From Desulfobacteraceae bacterium (lineage in GTDB: Bacteria > Desulfobacterota > DSM-4660 > Desulfatiglandales > Desulfatiglandaceae): a stretch of 8,460 bases of DNA. Below the pieces are notes generated by a model. The model saw only the letters and a program-made list of their open reading frames with translations, was not told the DNA's origin and ran no database searches. The stretch covers positions 1-8,460 of the forward strand of contig JABMQV010000631.1 in the NCBI GenBank assembly GCA_013203065.1, read 5' to 3'. Below are positions 1,407 to 6,376 of this stretch, one piece after another (within the stretch, counting starts at the first letter, position 1; every line of letters begins with the position of its first letter). A program made the translations under genes and the position numbers.

Positions 1407-2552
1407 ATGAACTTCGCATACACAGAAGAAATGCAGATGTACAAGAAGATTGCCATAGACTTTTGCGATAGGCATATCGCTCCTACAGCGGGAGAGTATG
1501 ACAAAAGTCGTGAGTTTCCGTATGAAGTTCTAGAAAAAATGGGTAAGGAAGGTTTCATGGGGATCAATGTACCTGAAGAATATGGCGGCTTAGGCCTGGA
1601 CCACCTCACAAATGCCGTGATTGTGGAGGAACTGGCTCGGGCCTCGGCCACGATCGCTTTAATCCATCAGGTTCATCGTGTTTGCATCAACCATCTGATC
1701 AATTTTGGAAGCGACGAGCAAAAACAGCGATTTCTGCCAGGATTAGCGACAGGCGAACACTTGGGGGGCTTTTGTTTTACCGAGAGTCAGACTGCTTCAG
1801 ATCCCATGGATTTTACATGCTTCGCAGAAAGAAAGGATGATCACTACGTCGTAAATGGCGCAAAGGGATGGGTGACGAATTCAGTAGCAGGGACGGTTTT
1901 CGTTGTTTTCATGCGAATAGCGAAGGAGAATGCGCGAAATTCCTTTAACAACTTCTTGGTGGAGAAGGAATTTCCTGGATTTACCGTAGGTCCGCGGTAT
2001 CGGACGGTAGGCTTTTGTGCCTCAACAACCTGTGATTTCAAATTCAAAGACATGAGGGTTCCTATGGAGAACCGACTGGGTGAAGAGGGAGAAGGATTGG
2101 CCCATATCGGGAAAACGATACATTGGGGACAGGCATACCTCGGCGTAATTGGAGTAGGTATTGGCGAGGCATGTCTGGAGCAGGCCGCAAAATATGCAAA
2201 GCAGCGGGTTATTTCCGGGAACCCCATCATAAAGTATCAATTGATCGCCCAGAAACTAGCAGATATGTTCATTGAAATCGAATCCGCACGCCTGCTGTGT
2301 CATAAGGCGGTATGGATAATCGAAAACGGCATCAACCCGGCGTTGAACAGTCGGGCTGCCAAGGTCGCCGCAGGGGAGGCGTGCATGAAAGCGGCTGTCG
2401 AGACCCTGGAGATTATGGGCAGTGCCGGTTACTGTGATGAATATCCGGTAGAGCGGTATTTTAGAGATGCCAAATTTATCGCCGTTGGCCTGGGGCCGGC
2501 GGAGATACAACGGATTAACATGGGACGGGCAATAGAAAAGATTTATTCATGA
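1407..2552 (+). CDS. Acyl-CoA dehydrogenase-family protein ACAD-2, lacking canonical catalytic Glu
   Basis: The 381-residue protein has full ACAD length, and its ATG sits 9 bases after AGGAGG. The fold is clear: N-terminal helical domain with GINVPEEYGG (52-61), middle beta domain with CFTES...SD (123-132) and GAKGWVTNS (151-159), and C-terminal helices with YAKQR (263-267) and GYCDEYPVERYFRDAK (341-356). The catalytic signature is altered. Where ACAD-1 and ACAD-3 have xEGTSEVQ this protein has GLGPAEIQ (361-368), placing L362 at the Glu site. The alternative base site used by isovaleryl-CoA and long-chain dehydrogenases aligns with G241, and the neighbouring conserved Arg is Q242. The FAD-contact HGG triplet is replaced by MGS (337-339). 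It may be a non-catalytic partner in a mixed ACAD complex, or catalyse another acyl-CoA reaction; both are inferences. The fold assignment is secure. Confidence 0.92.
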   Translation: MNFAYTEEMQMYKKIAIDFCDRHIAPTAGEYDKSREFPYEVLEKMGKEGFMGINVPEEYGGLGLDHLTNAVIVEELARASATIALIHQVHRVCINHLINFGSDEQKQRFLPGLATGEHLGGFCFTESQTASDPMDFTCFAERKDDHYVVNGAKGWVTNSVAGTVFVVFMRIAKENARNSFNNFLVEKEFPGFTVGPRYRTVGFCASTTCDFKFKDMRVPMENRLGEEGEGLAHIGKTIHWGQAYLGVIGVGIGEACLEQAAKYAKQRVISGNPIIKYQLIAQKLADMFIEIESARLLCHKAVWIIENGINPALNSRAAKVAAGEACMKAAVETLEIMGSAGYCDEYPVERYFRDAKFIAVGLGPAEIQRINMGRAIEKIYS

Positions 2553-2577
2553 TAGTTTCAAGGGAGACCCGGGAATC

Positions 2578-3546
2578 TTGAATATCGTTGTATATCTTAA
2601 ATTAGAGAAAAATTATCGGGCATATGCCAAAGTGGATGGATCTACGTGTGAGAATTGCGGAATCTGTGCGAAGATTTGCCCCTTTGACGTACCGGATAGT
2701 ATTCAGGATGGCTCTACGGAAATCTCACCCGAAACGTGCAAGGGCTGTGGTGCCTGTGTCCCCTACTGTAAGACGAATTCCATTCACATGCACTACACCC
2801 TCAATTCCAAGCCTTACGAACCGGGCAAGTTTGCGTCACTTGGCCTGAGATACCCCTTGGACAGAAACGCCATAGAGGCAGGGCTTGCCCTTCGCGATGA
2901 ACTGGGCGGTAACGTCCGGATTTTGGCGGAAGGGTCTCCACGGTTTGAGGAATCGGTAAGAGAGGCGTTGGTCATGGGGGCTGATGAAGGCATCCTGCTC
3001 TGTGACAGGAAATTTCTGGGTTCGGATCACTGGGCATCATCGATTGTCCTTGAGAAGAGCTTGAAAAAGCTGGGAGATTGTGATCTGTTGATAGCTCCCC
3101 AGCGAAACGGGTATGGGGAGCAGCTCTTGTGTGTGGCGTGGGTAGCTGAGCGTCTGGGCATGTCCTACATGCCCTTTGTGACCTCCATTAAGCCCGCTGG
3201 GGATAGCCTGATTGTGAGACGAAATGGGCCAACCAGCCTTCTTGAACTGTCTGTTTCCCTACCCGCTGCCGTGACCGTGGAGCGCGGTATTAATGAACCC
3301 AGGGGATTATCCCTTCTGGCTGCTTCTCGCGTCATGGGCCGGAAAGTGCCGTACTGGACTTCCGAGGATCTGAATACGGAAGACAATCAAACAGGGGAGC
3401 TGGGGTCTCGCCTCAGGCTCGCACGGGTGCAGGCGCCTCCCAAAAGGAAGACAAAAAGGAGGCAGGGGGGGCAGATTTTGAGGGGATCTCCTGAGGTGTT
3501 GGCAGAAATCCTGGTCGAACGTCTTAAGGAGTGGCATGCGCTTTAG
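2578..3546 (+). CDS. Electron transfer flavoprotein beta subunit with inserted 2[4Fe-4S] ferredoxin domain
   Basis: The protein has 322 residues, longer than the usual EtfB of about 250-260. Residues 1-8 look like the first EtfB strand. A ferredoxin module follows with two complete CxxCxxCxxxC motifs (C24, C27, C30, C34 and C54, C57, C60, C64). EtfB sequence then resumes at YPLDRNAIEAGLALRDE (92-108), continues through REALVMGADEGILL (128-141) and reaches the family signature LPAAVTVERGINEPRGLSL (228-246). The tail is basic (289-295). The nucleotide-binding consensus DGDTxQ is replaced by a YGEQ-type sequence (179-182). Translation appears to begin at TTG 2578, 11 bases after GGGAG; no in-frame ATG lies nearby, and GTG 2632 would remove the first EtfB strand. 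With EtfA, 24 bases on, it should carry electrons from the flanking dehydrogenases in the cytosol. The ferredoxin domain suggests direct iron-sulfur exchange or bifurcation, which is inferred. Confidence 0.93.
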   Translation: MNIVVYLKLEKNYRAYAKVDGSTCENCGICAKICPFDVPDSIQDGSTEISPETCKGCGACVPYCKTNSIHMHYTLNSKPYEPGKFASLGLRYPLDRNAIEAGLALRDELGGNVRILAEGSPRFEESVREALVMGADEGILLCDRKFLGSDHWASSIVLEKSLKKLGDCDLLIAPQRNGYGEQLLCVAWVAERLGMSYMPFVTSIKPAGDSLIVRRNGPTSLLELSVSLPAAVTVERGINEPRGLSLLAASRVMGRKVPYWTSEDLNTEDNQTGELGSRLRLARVQAPPKRKTKRRQGGQILRGSPEVLAEILVERLKEWHAL

Positions 3547-3570
3547 GTAACGCAACAGGGGGAGAGCGAC

Positions 3571-4578
3571 GTGGGTTTTAATACAATTAGCAGAATCCTT
3601 GTGGTGGCAGAGGAAGAAGGCTGCGACCTCGCCCGCATCTCAAGGCAATCGGTAGGTGCAGCCCTGAAGTTCAAGGCCGAGTGGGGAAGTCAGGTTTTCG
3701 CTTTCTTGCCTTTGAATAGGAATGGCTCTGCTGTTGCAGCGCTGGCAAAATCAGGACCTCAGGGTGTCTACCAGCTTGAGCATGCCCTGGCAAATAAGCA
3801 TCCCTATGAGGTGGGTGTGGCGGGGCTTATCCGGTTGTTCGAAGAGGTGGAGACGGACCTGGTACTTTTTGGGGCCTCAGAGTGGGGAATTGATATGGCG
3901 GCGAGAACCGCTGCGAAGTTGGGAACCGGGCTGGTTCACGGGTTAATTGATTTAGAGAGAAGTCCTGAGGGTGAAAATGTAGTTGCTGTGTTTATGGGGT
4001 TTGAGGAGCAGCTCATCTGCAGAGCTCAGTTTAGGGGGCCAAAGCCCCTCATTGCCACGCTCAAACCAGATGTTTTTGTGCCGGCAACTGAAACCGATAG
4101 CGCCTGTCCGGTGGAAACGCTAAGCTTTTCGTCAGGTACGGGGAACACCGGGATTTCAGTAATCCGTAGCCTGCCATTTCAGCCCCATATGCCGGATTTG
4201 GAAAGCGCGGCCGTGGTGGTTGCAGGAGGTCAGGGGATAGGGGGTAAGGAGGGGTTCGCCATGCTTGAGGATCTGGCACGGCTGTTGGGTGGTGCGGTGG
4301 GCTGCACCCTTCCTCCGGCTGAGCAGGGTTGGGTGGATAGGGAGCTTATGATTGGATCTACCGGGAAGACCGTTCAACCCAAGGTATATATTGGATGCGG
4401 CATTCACGGAGATGCTTACCACACCTTGGGTATGGATGCGTCGGAAAATATCGTTGTGATCAACGACGATGATAAGGCGCCTTTTTTTGAGTTAGCTACC
4501 TGCGGACTCCTTGGCGATCTGCATGAAATTGTTCCTCAGTTGACAAAGAGAATCACGACTGAAAAAGGCCCTTCATAG
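3571..4578 (+). CDS. Electron transfer flavoprotein alpha subunit (EtfA/FixB family), divergent
   Basis: The 335-residue protein has near-normal EtfA length, with GTG start 3571 shortly after GGGGGAG (3558-3564). The N-terminal ETF domain includes DLVLFGASEWGIDMAARTAAKLG (residues 96-118). The C-terminal FAD domain includes VVAGGQGIGGKEGF (216-229), LGGAVG (239-244), GSTGKTVQPKVYIG (262-275), IVVINDDDKAPFFE (294-307) and GDLHEIVPQLT (315-325). The fold is clear but several FAD-site positions differ from the classical consensus: GGRG is GGQG; the Ser-Arg of GASR is T246-L247; QTG is STG; SGAxQH is H279-G-D-A-Y-H284. The conserved Asn298 and His284 remain. It has no ferredoxin domain itself; that domain is in its EtfB partner. 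It forms the heterodimer that receives electrons from the neighbouring acyl-CoA dehydrogenases. Whether it holds FAD normally is open. Confidence 0.92.
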   Translation: MGFNTISRILVVAEEEGCDLARISRQSVGAALKFKAEWGSQVFAFLPLNRNGSAVAALAKSGPQGVYQLEHALANKHPYEVGVAGLIRLFEEVETDLVLFGASEWGIDMAARTAAKLGTGLVHGLIDLERSPEGENVVAVFMGFEEQLICRAQFRGPKPLIATLKPDVFVPATETDSACPVETLSFSSGTGNTGISVIRSLPFQPHMPDLESAAVVVAGGQGIGGKEGFAMLEDLARLLGGAVGCTLPPAEQGWVDRELMIGSTGKTVQPKVYIGCGIHGDAYHTLGMDASENIVVINDDDKAPFFELATCGLLGDLHEIVPQLTKRITTEKGPS

Positions 4579-4622
4579 CGAGGCTCAAGCCGGGAAATCT
4601 AGCAAGGATTGGAGGAGGAAAC

Positions 4623-5984
4623 ATGAAAAAGATCAGGGTGGGAGCTGGTTCAGCATTCTGGGGAGACATGTTGGAACCTGCTATCGAACTCGTGGAGAAA
4701 GGAAACATTGACTATATTGGCTTTGATCACTTGGCAGAACTGACCCTTTCCATCCTTCAACGGGTTAGGGCAAAGGATCCTGCCAAAGGCTATATTCCCG
4801 ACATTATTCCCTATATGAAAGCGATTCTCCCGCCTGCCTGGGAAAAGGGGTGCAAAGTGATTACTAACGCGGGCGGGGCAAATCCGGAACAGGCTGCAGA
4901 GGAAGTCATAAAAATTGCCAGGGAAGCTGGTATGAAGGGAATGAAGGTGGGCGTTGTCACTGGTGATGATGTCTTTCCGAAATTGAACGAACTCTGTGAC
5001 AAAGGTATAAAGTTTCCAAATCTGGATACGGGTGAGGAAGATTTGGACCGCATCAAAGACCGAATCGTGGCAGCAAATGCCTATACGGGGTCGGGTGCAG
5101 TCATTGATGCCCTCAAAGGCGGCGCCCATGTGGTGATTGCGGGAAGAATATCGGACAATGCACTTTATGTGGCGCCTGTCATGTACGAATTTGGCTGGGA
5201 TTTTACCGAAGCAAATGTTGATCTGATCGCTTCAGCCATTACCATGGGCCATATTGTTGAGTGCTCGGAATGCTGCACAGGAGGGATGTCCAACATTTGG
5301 CAGGCCGTGCCTGAACCCTGGAGGATAGGGTTCCCCATAGCTGAATTTTATGAAAATGGAGAGTCAATCATCACGAAACCTCCGGATACGGGTGGGCTGG
5401 TCTGTGAATGGACCATAAAAGAGCATTTGGTCTATGAAGTCCTTGACCCGAGAAACTATATCATGCCCGACGGCGTTGCCGATTTCACCACAGTAACGGT
5501 TGAAGACGCTGGTGAAAATCGCGTGAAGGTCAGCCAGGCAAAGGGCAGGGGTAGACCAAAGGACTTGAAGCTCTGCATCGGCTTCAAAGACGGTTTTATT
5601 GGGGAGGCCCAGATATTTTTCCCTTGGCCTGACGCATTGGAAAAGGCCAAGAGAGCGGCTAACATCGTAAAAGAACGCTTTGATATGATCAACCTTGACG
5701 CAGAAGAGGTGCGCTTCGATTTTCTGGGGGTTAACACCATTCTCGGTGAAACTGTTCCGGTAGCGGACTTGGACTATAATGAGGTAGGACTACGTGTTGC
5801 CGCCAAAGCCCAATCTTTTGAGGAAGCAAATAAGGTGAGACGGGAGATAACTCACCTCTGGACCATCAGCAGTGTTGGAGCACATATGGGAGTCCCCAGC
5901 AAACCAAGGCCTGTTATTTCATTATGGCCCACCCTAATTCCGAGGGATGAGGTGACCCCTGAATTCGTTATTAAGGAGGTTTGA
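4623..5984 (+). CDS. AtuA-family (DUF1446) acyclic terpene utilisation protein
   Basis: The 453-residue protein has ATG 4623 closely preceded by a strong GGAGGAGG. It carries recognisable AtuA/DUF1446 features: RVGAGSAFWGD near the N-terminus, TNAGGANP (81-88), GRISDNALYVAPVMYEFGW (174-192), GHIVECSECCTGG (209-221), GFPIAEF (236-242), TKPPDTGGLV (251-260), PDGVADFT (282-289) and GFIGEAQI (324-331). No signal peptide or membrane segment is evident, so it is probably cytosolic. The family takes its name from the Pseudomonas atu cluster for citronellol/geraniol catabolism; its biochemical reaction is not firmly known to me. It is very common beside acyl-CoA carboxylases and dehydrogenases. Here its C-terminal companion domain is encoded by the next gene, two bases downstream, so the two are probably made together and form one functional unit. 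Family membership is secure; a terpene substrate is not. Confidence 0.92.
   Translation: MKKIRVGAGSAFWGDMLEPAIELVEKGNIDYIGFDHLAELTLSILQRVRAKDPAKGYIPDIIPYMKAILPPAWEKGCKVITNAGGANPEQAAEEVIKIAREAGMKGMKVGVVTGDDVFPKLNELCDKGIKFPNLDTGEEDLDRIKDRIVAANAYTGSGAVIDALKGGAHVVIAGRISDNALYVAPVMYEFGWDFTEANVDLIASAITMGHIVECSECCTGGMSNIWQAVPEPWRIGFPIAEFYENGESIITKPPDTGGLVCEWTIKEHLVYEVLDPRNYIMPDGVADFTTVTVEDAGENRVKVSQAKGRGRPKDLKLCIGFKDGFIGEAQIFFPWPDALEKAKRAANIVKERFDMINLDAEEVRFDFLGVNTILGETVPVADLDYNEVGLRVAAKAQSFEEANKVRREITHLWTISSVGAHMGVPSKPRPVISLWPTLIPRDEVTPEFVIKEV
5973..5980 (+). promoter_or_regulatory. Shine-Dalgarno AAGGAGGT deciding the start of the AtuA-related gene
   Basis: A near-perfect anti-16S complement lies inside the last codons of the atuA-like gene. 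It is 6-7 bases before GTG 5987 but directly against the in-frame TTG 5981, so GTG 5987 is the likely start. The placement also suggests translational coupling to the upstream gene. Confidence 0.8.
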
Positions 5985-5986
5985 TC

Positions 5987-6376
5987 GTGAAAAAGAGAGT
6001 GCGATTAGAGGAAATCAGTTTTGCAAGATCCGGGGATAAAGGGGATACATGTTCTGCCGGACTGATTGCGAAAACATCACGCGCCTATAAGACCTTGGTT
6101 GATGAAGTGACCCCGGAAAAAATCAAACGTCATTTTGGCAGCATGGTAAAAGGGAGCGTGGAACTTTATCCCATGCCAGGCGTAGAATGTCTTCACGTGG
6201 TCTTGCGAAATGCCCTCGGAGGCGGATCAACAAAGACGTTGCGATACGATCAGACAGGAAAGGCCATGGGACAGGCACTTCTTCGGATGGAGGTGGAAGT
6301 GGCGGATGATGTATTGACCGAAGCAAGACAGACGATGGAAAGGATCTATCATAAGTATGGAAAGGCATGGGGATGA
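5987..6376 (+). CDS. AtuA-related small protein (AtuA C-terminal domain as a separate gene)
   Basis: The 129-residue protein starts at GTG 5987, chosen from the ribosome binding site just upstream. It contains SFARSGDKGDT (11-21), GLIAKTSRAYK (25-35), HFGSMVKGSVELYPMPG (49-65) and RNALGGGSTKTLRYDQTGKA (74-93), then GQALLRMEV. These match the domain that follows the DUF1446 part in longer, fused AtuA proteins and also occurs as a stand-alone AtuA-related protein. No catalytic motif of known function or metal-binding cysteine cluster is visible. The two-base gap after the AtuA gene and their matched domains argue for a stable complex between the two products. The next gene begins about 20 bases downstream. 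Function is unknown; the identification rests on motif recognition and the neighbour. Confidence 0.88.
   Translation: MKKRVRLEEISFARSGDKGDTCSAGLIAKTSRAYKTLVDEVTPEKIKRHFGSMVKGSVELYPMPGVECLHVVLRNALGGGSTKTLRYDQTGKAMGQALLRMEVEVADDVLTEARQTMERIYHKYGKAWG

What the first reader, a model, noticed from the sequence alone, without database searches (positions are those of the whole stretch)
2578..2860. Two-cluster ferredoxin domain inserted between the first strand and the rest of an ETF beta subunit
Seen: eight Cys in two complete CxxCxxCxxxC motifs at residues 24-64, preceded by an EtfB-like first strand and followed by the EtfB core from about residue 92. Known: some anaerobic bifurcating ETFs, such as CarE of the Acetobacterium woodii caffeyl-CoA reductase complex, carry a ferredoxin domain on the alpha subunit N-terminus. 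A ferredoxin in the beta subunit, inside the loop where EtfB normally has its VPDT-type segment, is not an arrangement I recognise as described. Inference: it places two [4Fe-4S] clusters near the beta-subunit flavin/nucleotide site, giving a wired route to soluble ferredoxin or a membrane Fe-S oxidoreductase.
Basis: partly seen in the sequence, partly recalled or inferred. Interest (0 to 1): 0.75.

Follow-up and report, generated by a model that had tools for sequence, protein, structure and literature searches.

The report
Ferredoxin domain inside ETF beta subunit
This gene encodes an unusual electron-carrier protein subunit with a two-iron-sulfur-cluster domain inserted beside the place where related proteins hold a nucleotide or flavin, suggesting that clusters replaced the flavin as the electron relay.

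Summary
ORF 2578-3546 (322 aa, TTG start) is an EtfB whose first strand (residues 2-8) is separated from the rest (93-322) by an eight-Cys 2[4Fe-4S] ferredoxin domain (about 16-72): Pfam, an AlphaFold2 model (mean pLDDT 89) and structural matches agree. It belongs to a family: 13 other proteins, 43-98% identical, from records naming no organism; 13 of the 14 rows were put in a tree and form one clade.

All 14 rows lack the DGDTAQVGP stretch that recognises beta-FAD. The 15 related EtfAs (this one and 14 at 43-99% identity) all lack the Arg that touches beta-FAD N5, and have Leu for the alpha-FAD Arg (Arg in 39 of 39 and 99 of 101 other EtfAs, two without a letter). So this is probably not a bifurcating ETF with a ferredoxin adaptor. 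My best reading: two [4Fe-4S] clusters took over from the beta cofactor as a one-electron relay between alpha-FAD and an iron-sulfur partner. That is inference: no cofactor was measured and no dimer modelled. Ten searches of open-access papers showed no description; a key survey of ETF groups was not held. New variant of a known kind.

The parts
2578..3546 (+). Fer4-containing EtfB (322 aa, TTG start)
2581..2601 (+). EtfB strand 1 (residues 2-8)
   Evidence: model strand E2-8; aligned with strand 1 of ordinary EtfB
2623..2793 (+). inserted 2[4Fe-4S] ferredoxin domain (residues 16-72; Cys 24/27/30/34 and 54/57/60/64)
2854..3543 (+). EtfB core (residues 93-322)
   Evidence: PF01012 at residues 93-243; CarD 6fah_B phmmer E 3.9e-28 over residues 92-321
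3106..3141 (+). degenerate beta-nucleotide loop (residues 177-188, NGYGEQLLCVAW) where bifurcating ETFs have DGDTAQVGP
3001..3003 (+). EtfB Cys142, specific to this family (14/14 vs 0/30)
3571..4578 (+). adjacent EtfA (335 aa), without a ferredoxin domain
3991..3993 (+). EtfA Phe141 at the column that I take for the Arg contacting beta-FAD N5 in bifurcating ETFs
   Evidence: and the CarE alignment; role of that Arg from PMC9232219
4018..4020 (+). EtfA Cys150, specific to this family (14/15 vs 1/38)
4309..4311 (+). EtfA Leu247 replacing the alpha-FAD Arg
1407..2552 (+). acyl-CoA dehydrogenase directly upstream, a candidate redox partner; no Glu in the IYEGT-type motif

Best explanation
This is a distinct family of ETFs in which a 2[4Fe-4S] ferredoxin sits in the first loop of EtfB while the beta-nucleotide/flavin site has decayed. 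Shown: the domain insertion, its conservation, the loss of the beta-FAD recognition stretch in EtfB and of the Arg at the beta-FAD N5 column in the related EtfAs, and the replacement of the alpha-FAD Arg by Leu. Inferred: there is no bifurcating beta-FAD. The mobile EtfA domain II carries alpha-FAD between an acyl-CoA dehydrogenase and the EtfAB base, where it exchanges single electrons with the two clusters instead of with beta-FAD. The clusters pass them to or from an iron-sulfur partner, either soluble ferredoxin or an Fe-S oxidoreductase. Loss of the alpha Arg should lower the alpha-FAD/semiquinone potential and relieve the semiquinone lock, suiting exchange with low-potential clusters. 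The direction (acyl-CoA oxidation or enoyl-CoA reduction) is not determined.
For: Insertion. DGDTAQVGP stretch: the first Asp column is D in 28 of 30 ordinary EtfB rows and in 0 of 14 family rows; the Gln and Pro columns have no Q and no P in 14 of 14, and an invariant Ala-Trp ends the stretch. In LctBCD, replacing six residues of this stretch cut FAD from 2.9 to 1.7 per complex and NADH:DCPIP activity from 8.8 to 0.4 U/mg (PMC9232219, section 8). Arg at beta-FAD N5 (LctC R205): 0 of 15 related EtfAs; R in 95 and K in 4 of 101 EtfA ORFs from loci. Alpha-FAD Arg: L 15 of 15; R 39 of 39 ordinary rows and 99 of 101 locus rows, two without a letter. That Arg is one of three residues credited with the high alpha-FAD/semiquinone potential (PMC12630350, section 16; the roughly 200 mV figure is the title of a paper in its reference list).
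Against: No cofactor has been measured. The column that I take for the Gly said to be invariant in bifurcating ETFs (PMC12630350 passage) is still Gly in 9 of 14, this protein included. F and G of the NADH-site RxFxG stay in 14 of 14, more than in the 30 ordinary rows (F 21, G 24), though R stays in 3 of 14, this protein included (ordinary 13 of 30). A remodelled loop could still bind AMP or FAD. The single-chain models hold no ligands and no coordinates were returned, so cluster-to-FAD distances are unknown. The N5-Arg loss is not unique: of the 39 ordinary EtfAs in alignment A6, R stands in 17, V in 17, T in 2, K in 1, with 2 gaps. The alpha Arg is not the only tuner: the Fusobacterium ETF keeps it and still has low, closely spaced potentials (PMC12630350).
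Confidence: 0.5

Rival explanations
1. A non-bifurcating ETF that keeps a structural AMP (or nothing) at the beta site, in which the ferredoxin domain is mainly a docking adaptor for one partner and the clusters are not on the main alpha-FAD route.
For: In CarCDE the EtfA-borne ferredoxin can be cut off without loss of bifurcation (stated in PMC9232219). The EtfB core fold is kept, and so is the G-S/A-D motif.
Against: The usual nucleotide loop has lost its first Asp, Gln and Pro in 14 of 14 rows. Eight Cys are invariant, which is more than a docking surface needs (inference).
Confidence: 0.22
2. Still a bifurcating ETF: beta-FAD is bound by a remodelled loop, and the inserted ferredoxin, like the EtfA-borne one of CarE, carries the low-potential electron out.
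For: Best PDB sequence hit is CarD of the bifurcating caffeyl-CoA reductase. RxFxG Phe and Gly are kept in 14 of 14, and the small Gly in 9 of 14.
Against: Beta-FAD stretch lost 14/14, N5 Arg absent 15/15, alpha Arg absent 15/15. R205A alone abolishes bifurcation and confurcation in LctBCD (PMC9232219).
Confidence: 0.12
3. The base is re-used for another cofactor: two family-specific Cys (EtfB C142, EtfA C150), one two residues before the RxFxG motif and one nine residues after the beta-FAD N5 column, bind an extra metal or form a redox disulfide that works with the two clusters.
For: EtfB C142 14/14 vs 0/30; EtfA C150 14/15 vs 1/38.
Confidence: 0.08
4. Assembly or gene-calling artefact, or a decaying gene.
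For: P0006 is listed from the later Val start.
Against: Same architecture in 13 other proteins at 43-98% identity, no internal stop, confident fold.
Confidence: 0.02

Closest known systems
CarDE of caffeyl-CoA reductase (Acetobacterium woodii, PDB 6fah)
   Same: EtfAB with a two-[4Fe-4S] ferredoxin domain; CarD is the best PDB sequence hit to this EtfB
   Different: Ferredoxin is N-terminal on EtfA (CarE; PMC5861303 passage), and CarD/CarE show DGDTAQVGS and TRPAFGG; here the ferredoxin is inside EtfB and those motifs are missing
LctBC of lactate dehydrogenase-EtfAB (A. woodii, PDB 7qh2)
   Same: EtfAB with a ferredoxin domain needed for coupling (PMC9232219)
   Different: One cluster, on EtfA; DGDTAQVGP present and shown to be required
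Fix/EtfABCX (PDB 7koe)
   Same: ETF coupled to a [4Fe-4S] protein; its EtfA is the best sequence hit to this EtfA
   Different: The cluster protein FixX is a separate subunit (PMC6085437 passage); bifurcating
Canonical AMP-type ETF (human 1efv, Paracoccus 1efp)
   Same: One FAD, on EtfA domain II; same fold
   Different: Redox-inert AMP in the beta site (PMC12630350 passage) and no ferredoxin domain; the alpha Arg, Leu here, is said there to be conserved

Membership tests
ETF superfamily (EtfA/EtfB heterodimer) | PF01012 in both subunits, PF00766 in EtfA, adjacent genes | tested here: met
   24 bases between the two ORFs; folds
Bifurcating ETF | DGDTAQVGP beta-FAD recognition stretch in EtfB | tested here: not met
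   0 of 14 family rows; motif definition from PMC9232219
Bifurcating ETF | EtfA Arg at beta-FAD N5 | tested here: not met
   0 of 15 related EtfAs; R 95, K 4 of 101 locus EtfAs; but R only 17 of 39 in the other rows of A6
Bifurcating ETF | Arg at alpha-FAD that stabilises the anionic semiquinone (shared with canonical ETFs) | tested here: not met
   L in 15 of 15; R in 39 of 39 and 99 of 101 with 2 gaps
Bifurcating ETF | RxFxG NADH-site motif in EtfB | tested here: inconclusive
   F and G 14 of 14; R 3 of 14, this protein included
[quoted passage not shown]
   S 13 of 13, but no P and no T in 13 of 13 family rows with a letter; ordinary rows P 17 and T 20 of 30
Bifurcating ETF | Two FAD per heterodimer; NADH-dependent ferredoxin reduction | not testable with these tools
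   needs purified protein
CarE/LctC-type ETF with ferredoxin on EtfA | Fer4 domain at the EtfA N-terminus | tested here: not met
   EtfA 3571-4578 has only PF01012 and PF00766
Canonical AMP-type ETF | AMP bound in EtfB | not testable with these tools
   the usual loop has lost its first Asp, Gln and Pro in 14 of 14 rows, but binding was not measured
2[4Fe-4S] ferredoxin domain | Two CxxCxxCxxxC motifs and the clostridial ferredoxin fold | tested here: met
2[4Fe-4S] ferredoxin domain | Two bound clusters | not testable with these tools
   iron content not measured

The most novel reading that the evidence does not exclude
A third cofactor class of ETF: neither AMP (canonical) nor FAD (bifurcating) in the beta site, but a built-in 2[4Fe-4S] relay. 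With a retuned alpha-FAD (Arg to Leu) it makes acyl-CoA dehydrogenases exchange electrons directly with ferredoxin-type carriers without NADH and without bifurcation.
Probability: 0.4. Interest if true: 0.75.

Novelty: new variant of a known kind. Interest (0 to 1): 0.6.

Why it matters
In the papers I saw, ETFs hold AMP or FAD at the beta site. A family whose beta site lost the usual binding residues while gaining two clusters in a neighbouring loop would show that this position can be swapped from flavin to iron-sulfur, and would give anaerobes a non-bifurcating link between acyl-CoA dehydrogenases and ferredoxin-type carriers. It also gives a natural test of what the conserved alpha-FAD Arg is for, because it is Leu in all 15 related EtfAs seen.

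Tried and rejected
Start at GTG 2632: disfavoured.

Chance or artefact: rejected because of 13 further proteins of the same architecture. P0164, a 168-aa fragment without the ferredoxin part, was dropped from counts; P0009 (partial) was kept in alignment A5 but left out of the tree together with P0172. Both protein searches on EtfB scored only the 7999 and 7997 candidates sharing most words, so more distant members may be missed.

Finding the host genome: no whole genome is held for the window. A genome-contig scan with the single protein gave 11 pattern stretches and no relative. In the 110 loci then held, 104 ORFs matched the EtfB core (some are the same gene fetched twice) and 0 matched the ferredoxin part. 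Of 31 of the 80 loci looked at closely, 18 show an ORF with two CxxCxxCxxxC motifs of the CarE type just downstream of the EtfB. Whole-genome samples: EtfB profile, ordinary matches in 15 of 16 genomes (best 161.7 bits) and 0 of 395 genomes of the phylum of L029 at E 1e-48; EtfA profile, hits at 1e-65 in 12 of 301, 6 of 199, 10 of 43 and 75 of 299 genomes of four further phyla, best 269.8 bits, and 0 of 369 and 0 of 299 at 1e-85. No family member was available as a positive control there, and only part of the candidates was scored in many genomes, so these absences are weak. The 110 loci include the best hits, and none of the 99 locus EtfAs with a letter at that place has the family's Leu.

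Using AtuA to guess the taxon was uninformative: 4 of 22 genomes matched, best 56% identity in the genome of L065, titled Armatimonadetes.

Promoter/terminator scan of 2300-4800: one promoter-like site (1.4 expected) and no terminator (2.6 expected); nothing to build on.

Literature: ten searches. Garcia Costas 2017 (DOI from recall) and Mohamed-Raseek 2022 were not held, so novelty is judged against the open-access library only.

Full report

Family. The first protein search returned 41 hits: 11 with ferredoxin plus ETF, 27 EtfBs without ferredoxin, and 3 other ferredoxin proteins. A search with the core alone returned 23: 13 with the insertion (P0162 and P0163 new), 1 fragment and 9 ordinary. 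Both searches scored a capped candidate list. That makes 14 rows with the window. All eight Cys are invariant in the 12-row alignment, and both motifs are complete in P0162 and P0163. In 13 of 14 rows the strand-1 residues are present, with M (10), L (2) or V (1) at the start position; P0006 is listed from the later Val. A tree on 80 rows (42 of the 44 of A5 and EtfBs of 38 loci; ferredoxin part and strand 1 of the insertion rows cut off) puts the 13 insertion rows in one clade (SH-aLRT 100) on a long stem of 1.23 changes per column (quick method, midpoint root for drawing only, so depth and sister group are open).

The beta site. Bifurcating ETFs carry DGDTAQVGP in EtfB as the beta-FAD recognition motif; replacing six of its residues in LctBCD removed about one FAD per complex and nearly all NADH:DCPIP activity (PMC9232219, section 8 read in full). 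In this family the corresponding stretch is NGYGEQLLCVAW here and varies among members. The first-Asp column is D in 28 of 30 ordinary rows and 0 of 14 family rows. The family has an invariant Ala-Trp at its end (Trp188: 14/14 vs 0/30). The EtfA Arg that H-bonds beta-FAD N5 (LctC R205, whose Ala variant cannot bifurcate) is absent from 15 of 15 related EtfAs, against R in 95 and K in 4 of 101 EtfA ORFs from the loci. In the 39 other EtfAs of alignment A6, however, R stands in only 17 and V in 17, so that loss alone is not unique. The SPT anchor of the EtfB arm keeps only its Ser (P and T in 0 of 13). Against complete loss: RxFxG keeps F and G in 14 of 14 rows (R in 3 of 14, this protein included), and the Gly of the loop stays in 9 of 14.

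The alpha site. The adjacent EtfA (3571-4578) has the ETF fold and FAD domain and no ferredoxin. The Arg next to alpha-FAD is Leu in 15 of 15, against R in 39 of 39 other rows and 99 of 101 locus rows, two having no letter there. Two neighbours in the flavin-binding stretch also change without exception: Asp281 and Tyr283, 15/15 vs 0/39 each. Thr264 and His284 are kept in 15 of 15. Published work credits this Arg, with a Ser and a His, for the high alpha-FAD/semiquinone potential (PMC12630350, section 16 read). The same section explains that bifurcation relies on that stable semiquinone, so its loss argues against bifurcation independently of the beta site; it also reports an ETF that keeps the Arg yet has low, closely spaced potentials, so the Arg is not the whole story. 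Matching its residue numbers to this protein is my alignment-based inference.

Mechanism. Shown: insertion, conservation, loss of beta-FAD residues in both subunits, change at alpha-FAD. Inferred: alpha-FAD on mobile domain II shuttles between a dehydrogenase and the EtfAB base, and at the base meets clusters instead of beta-FAD; the clusters then hand single electrons to or from an iron-sulfur partner. The known alpha-to-beta FAD distance is 18 Å, modelled to 14 Å in the B-state (PMC5691135 passages), so a cluster at or near the vacated site could be in range. I could not measure this: models were single chains and no coordinates were returned. Direction is open. Ferredoxin-driven enoyl-CoA reduction is downhill; oxidation of acyl-CoA would need a higher-potential partner. 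The neighbours (three acyl-CoA dehydrogenases, one cut by the window edge, an enoyl-CoA hydratase, a short-chain dehydrogenase, an AtuA pair) look catabolic, which favours oxidation, but none of the nine proteins scanned is an electron-acceptor oxidoreductase.

Extra lead. Two Cys are specific to the family: EtfB C142 (14/14 vs 0/30), two residues before RxFxG, and EtfA C150 (14/15 vs 1/38), nine residues after the N5-Arg column. They may line the vacated site; whether they are close in the dimer is unknown.

Relation to known systems. It is an ETF by domains and fold. Of the five sequence marks of bifurcating ETFs tested, four are not met and one (RxFxG) is inconclusive. It is not of the CarE/LctC type because EtfA has no ferredoxin domain. 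In the passages seen of PMC9232219, PMC6085437 and PMC5861303, clusters on ETFs are placed on EtfA or on separate FixX (PMC6085437 in its text interchanges the names CarD and CarE but still says EtfA). Ten library searches showed no EtfB-borne case; the five-group ETF survey of Garcia Costas 2017 was not held. I rate it a new variant of a known kind.

Noticed in passing
window 1407-2552: The acyl-CoA dehydrogenase directly upstream of etfB has AVGLG where the other two window dehydrogenases have SIYEG and EIGEG, so the usual catalytic Glu (role recalled) is Leu.
   Followed up: partly
EtfB residue 142 (window 3001-3003) and EtfA residue 150 (window 4018-4020): Two Cys conserved only in this family, by sequence near the former beta-flavin site; possible extra ligands or a disulfide.
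   Followed up: partly
window 4623-6376: An AtuA protein and a separate small protein matching Pfam AtuA_ferredoxin; the small protein has only two Cys and no CxxCxxC motif, so the name seems to refer to fold only.
   Followed up: no
P0101: A 562-aa acyl-CoA dehydrogenase carrying an EtfA FAD-binding domain (PF00766) at its C-terminus: a dehydrogenase-EtfA fusion with Arg (GATRP) at the alpha-FAD position.
   Followed up: no
EtfA relatives such as P0056, P0057, P0065: A second group of EtfAs (named hits include Pelotomaculum thermopropionicum and Pelosinus) has Val at the beta-FAD N5 Arg column and an IGTSGK-type alpha site; possibly another non-bifurcating type.
   Followed up: no
18 of 31 loci examined, e.g. 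L001, L002, L004, L005, L009-L012: CarE-type ferredoxin-EtfA ORFs directly follow ordinary etfB, among others in Omnitrophota, Aminicenantes, Chitinispirillaceae and Tissierellia records.
   Followed up: no
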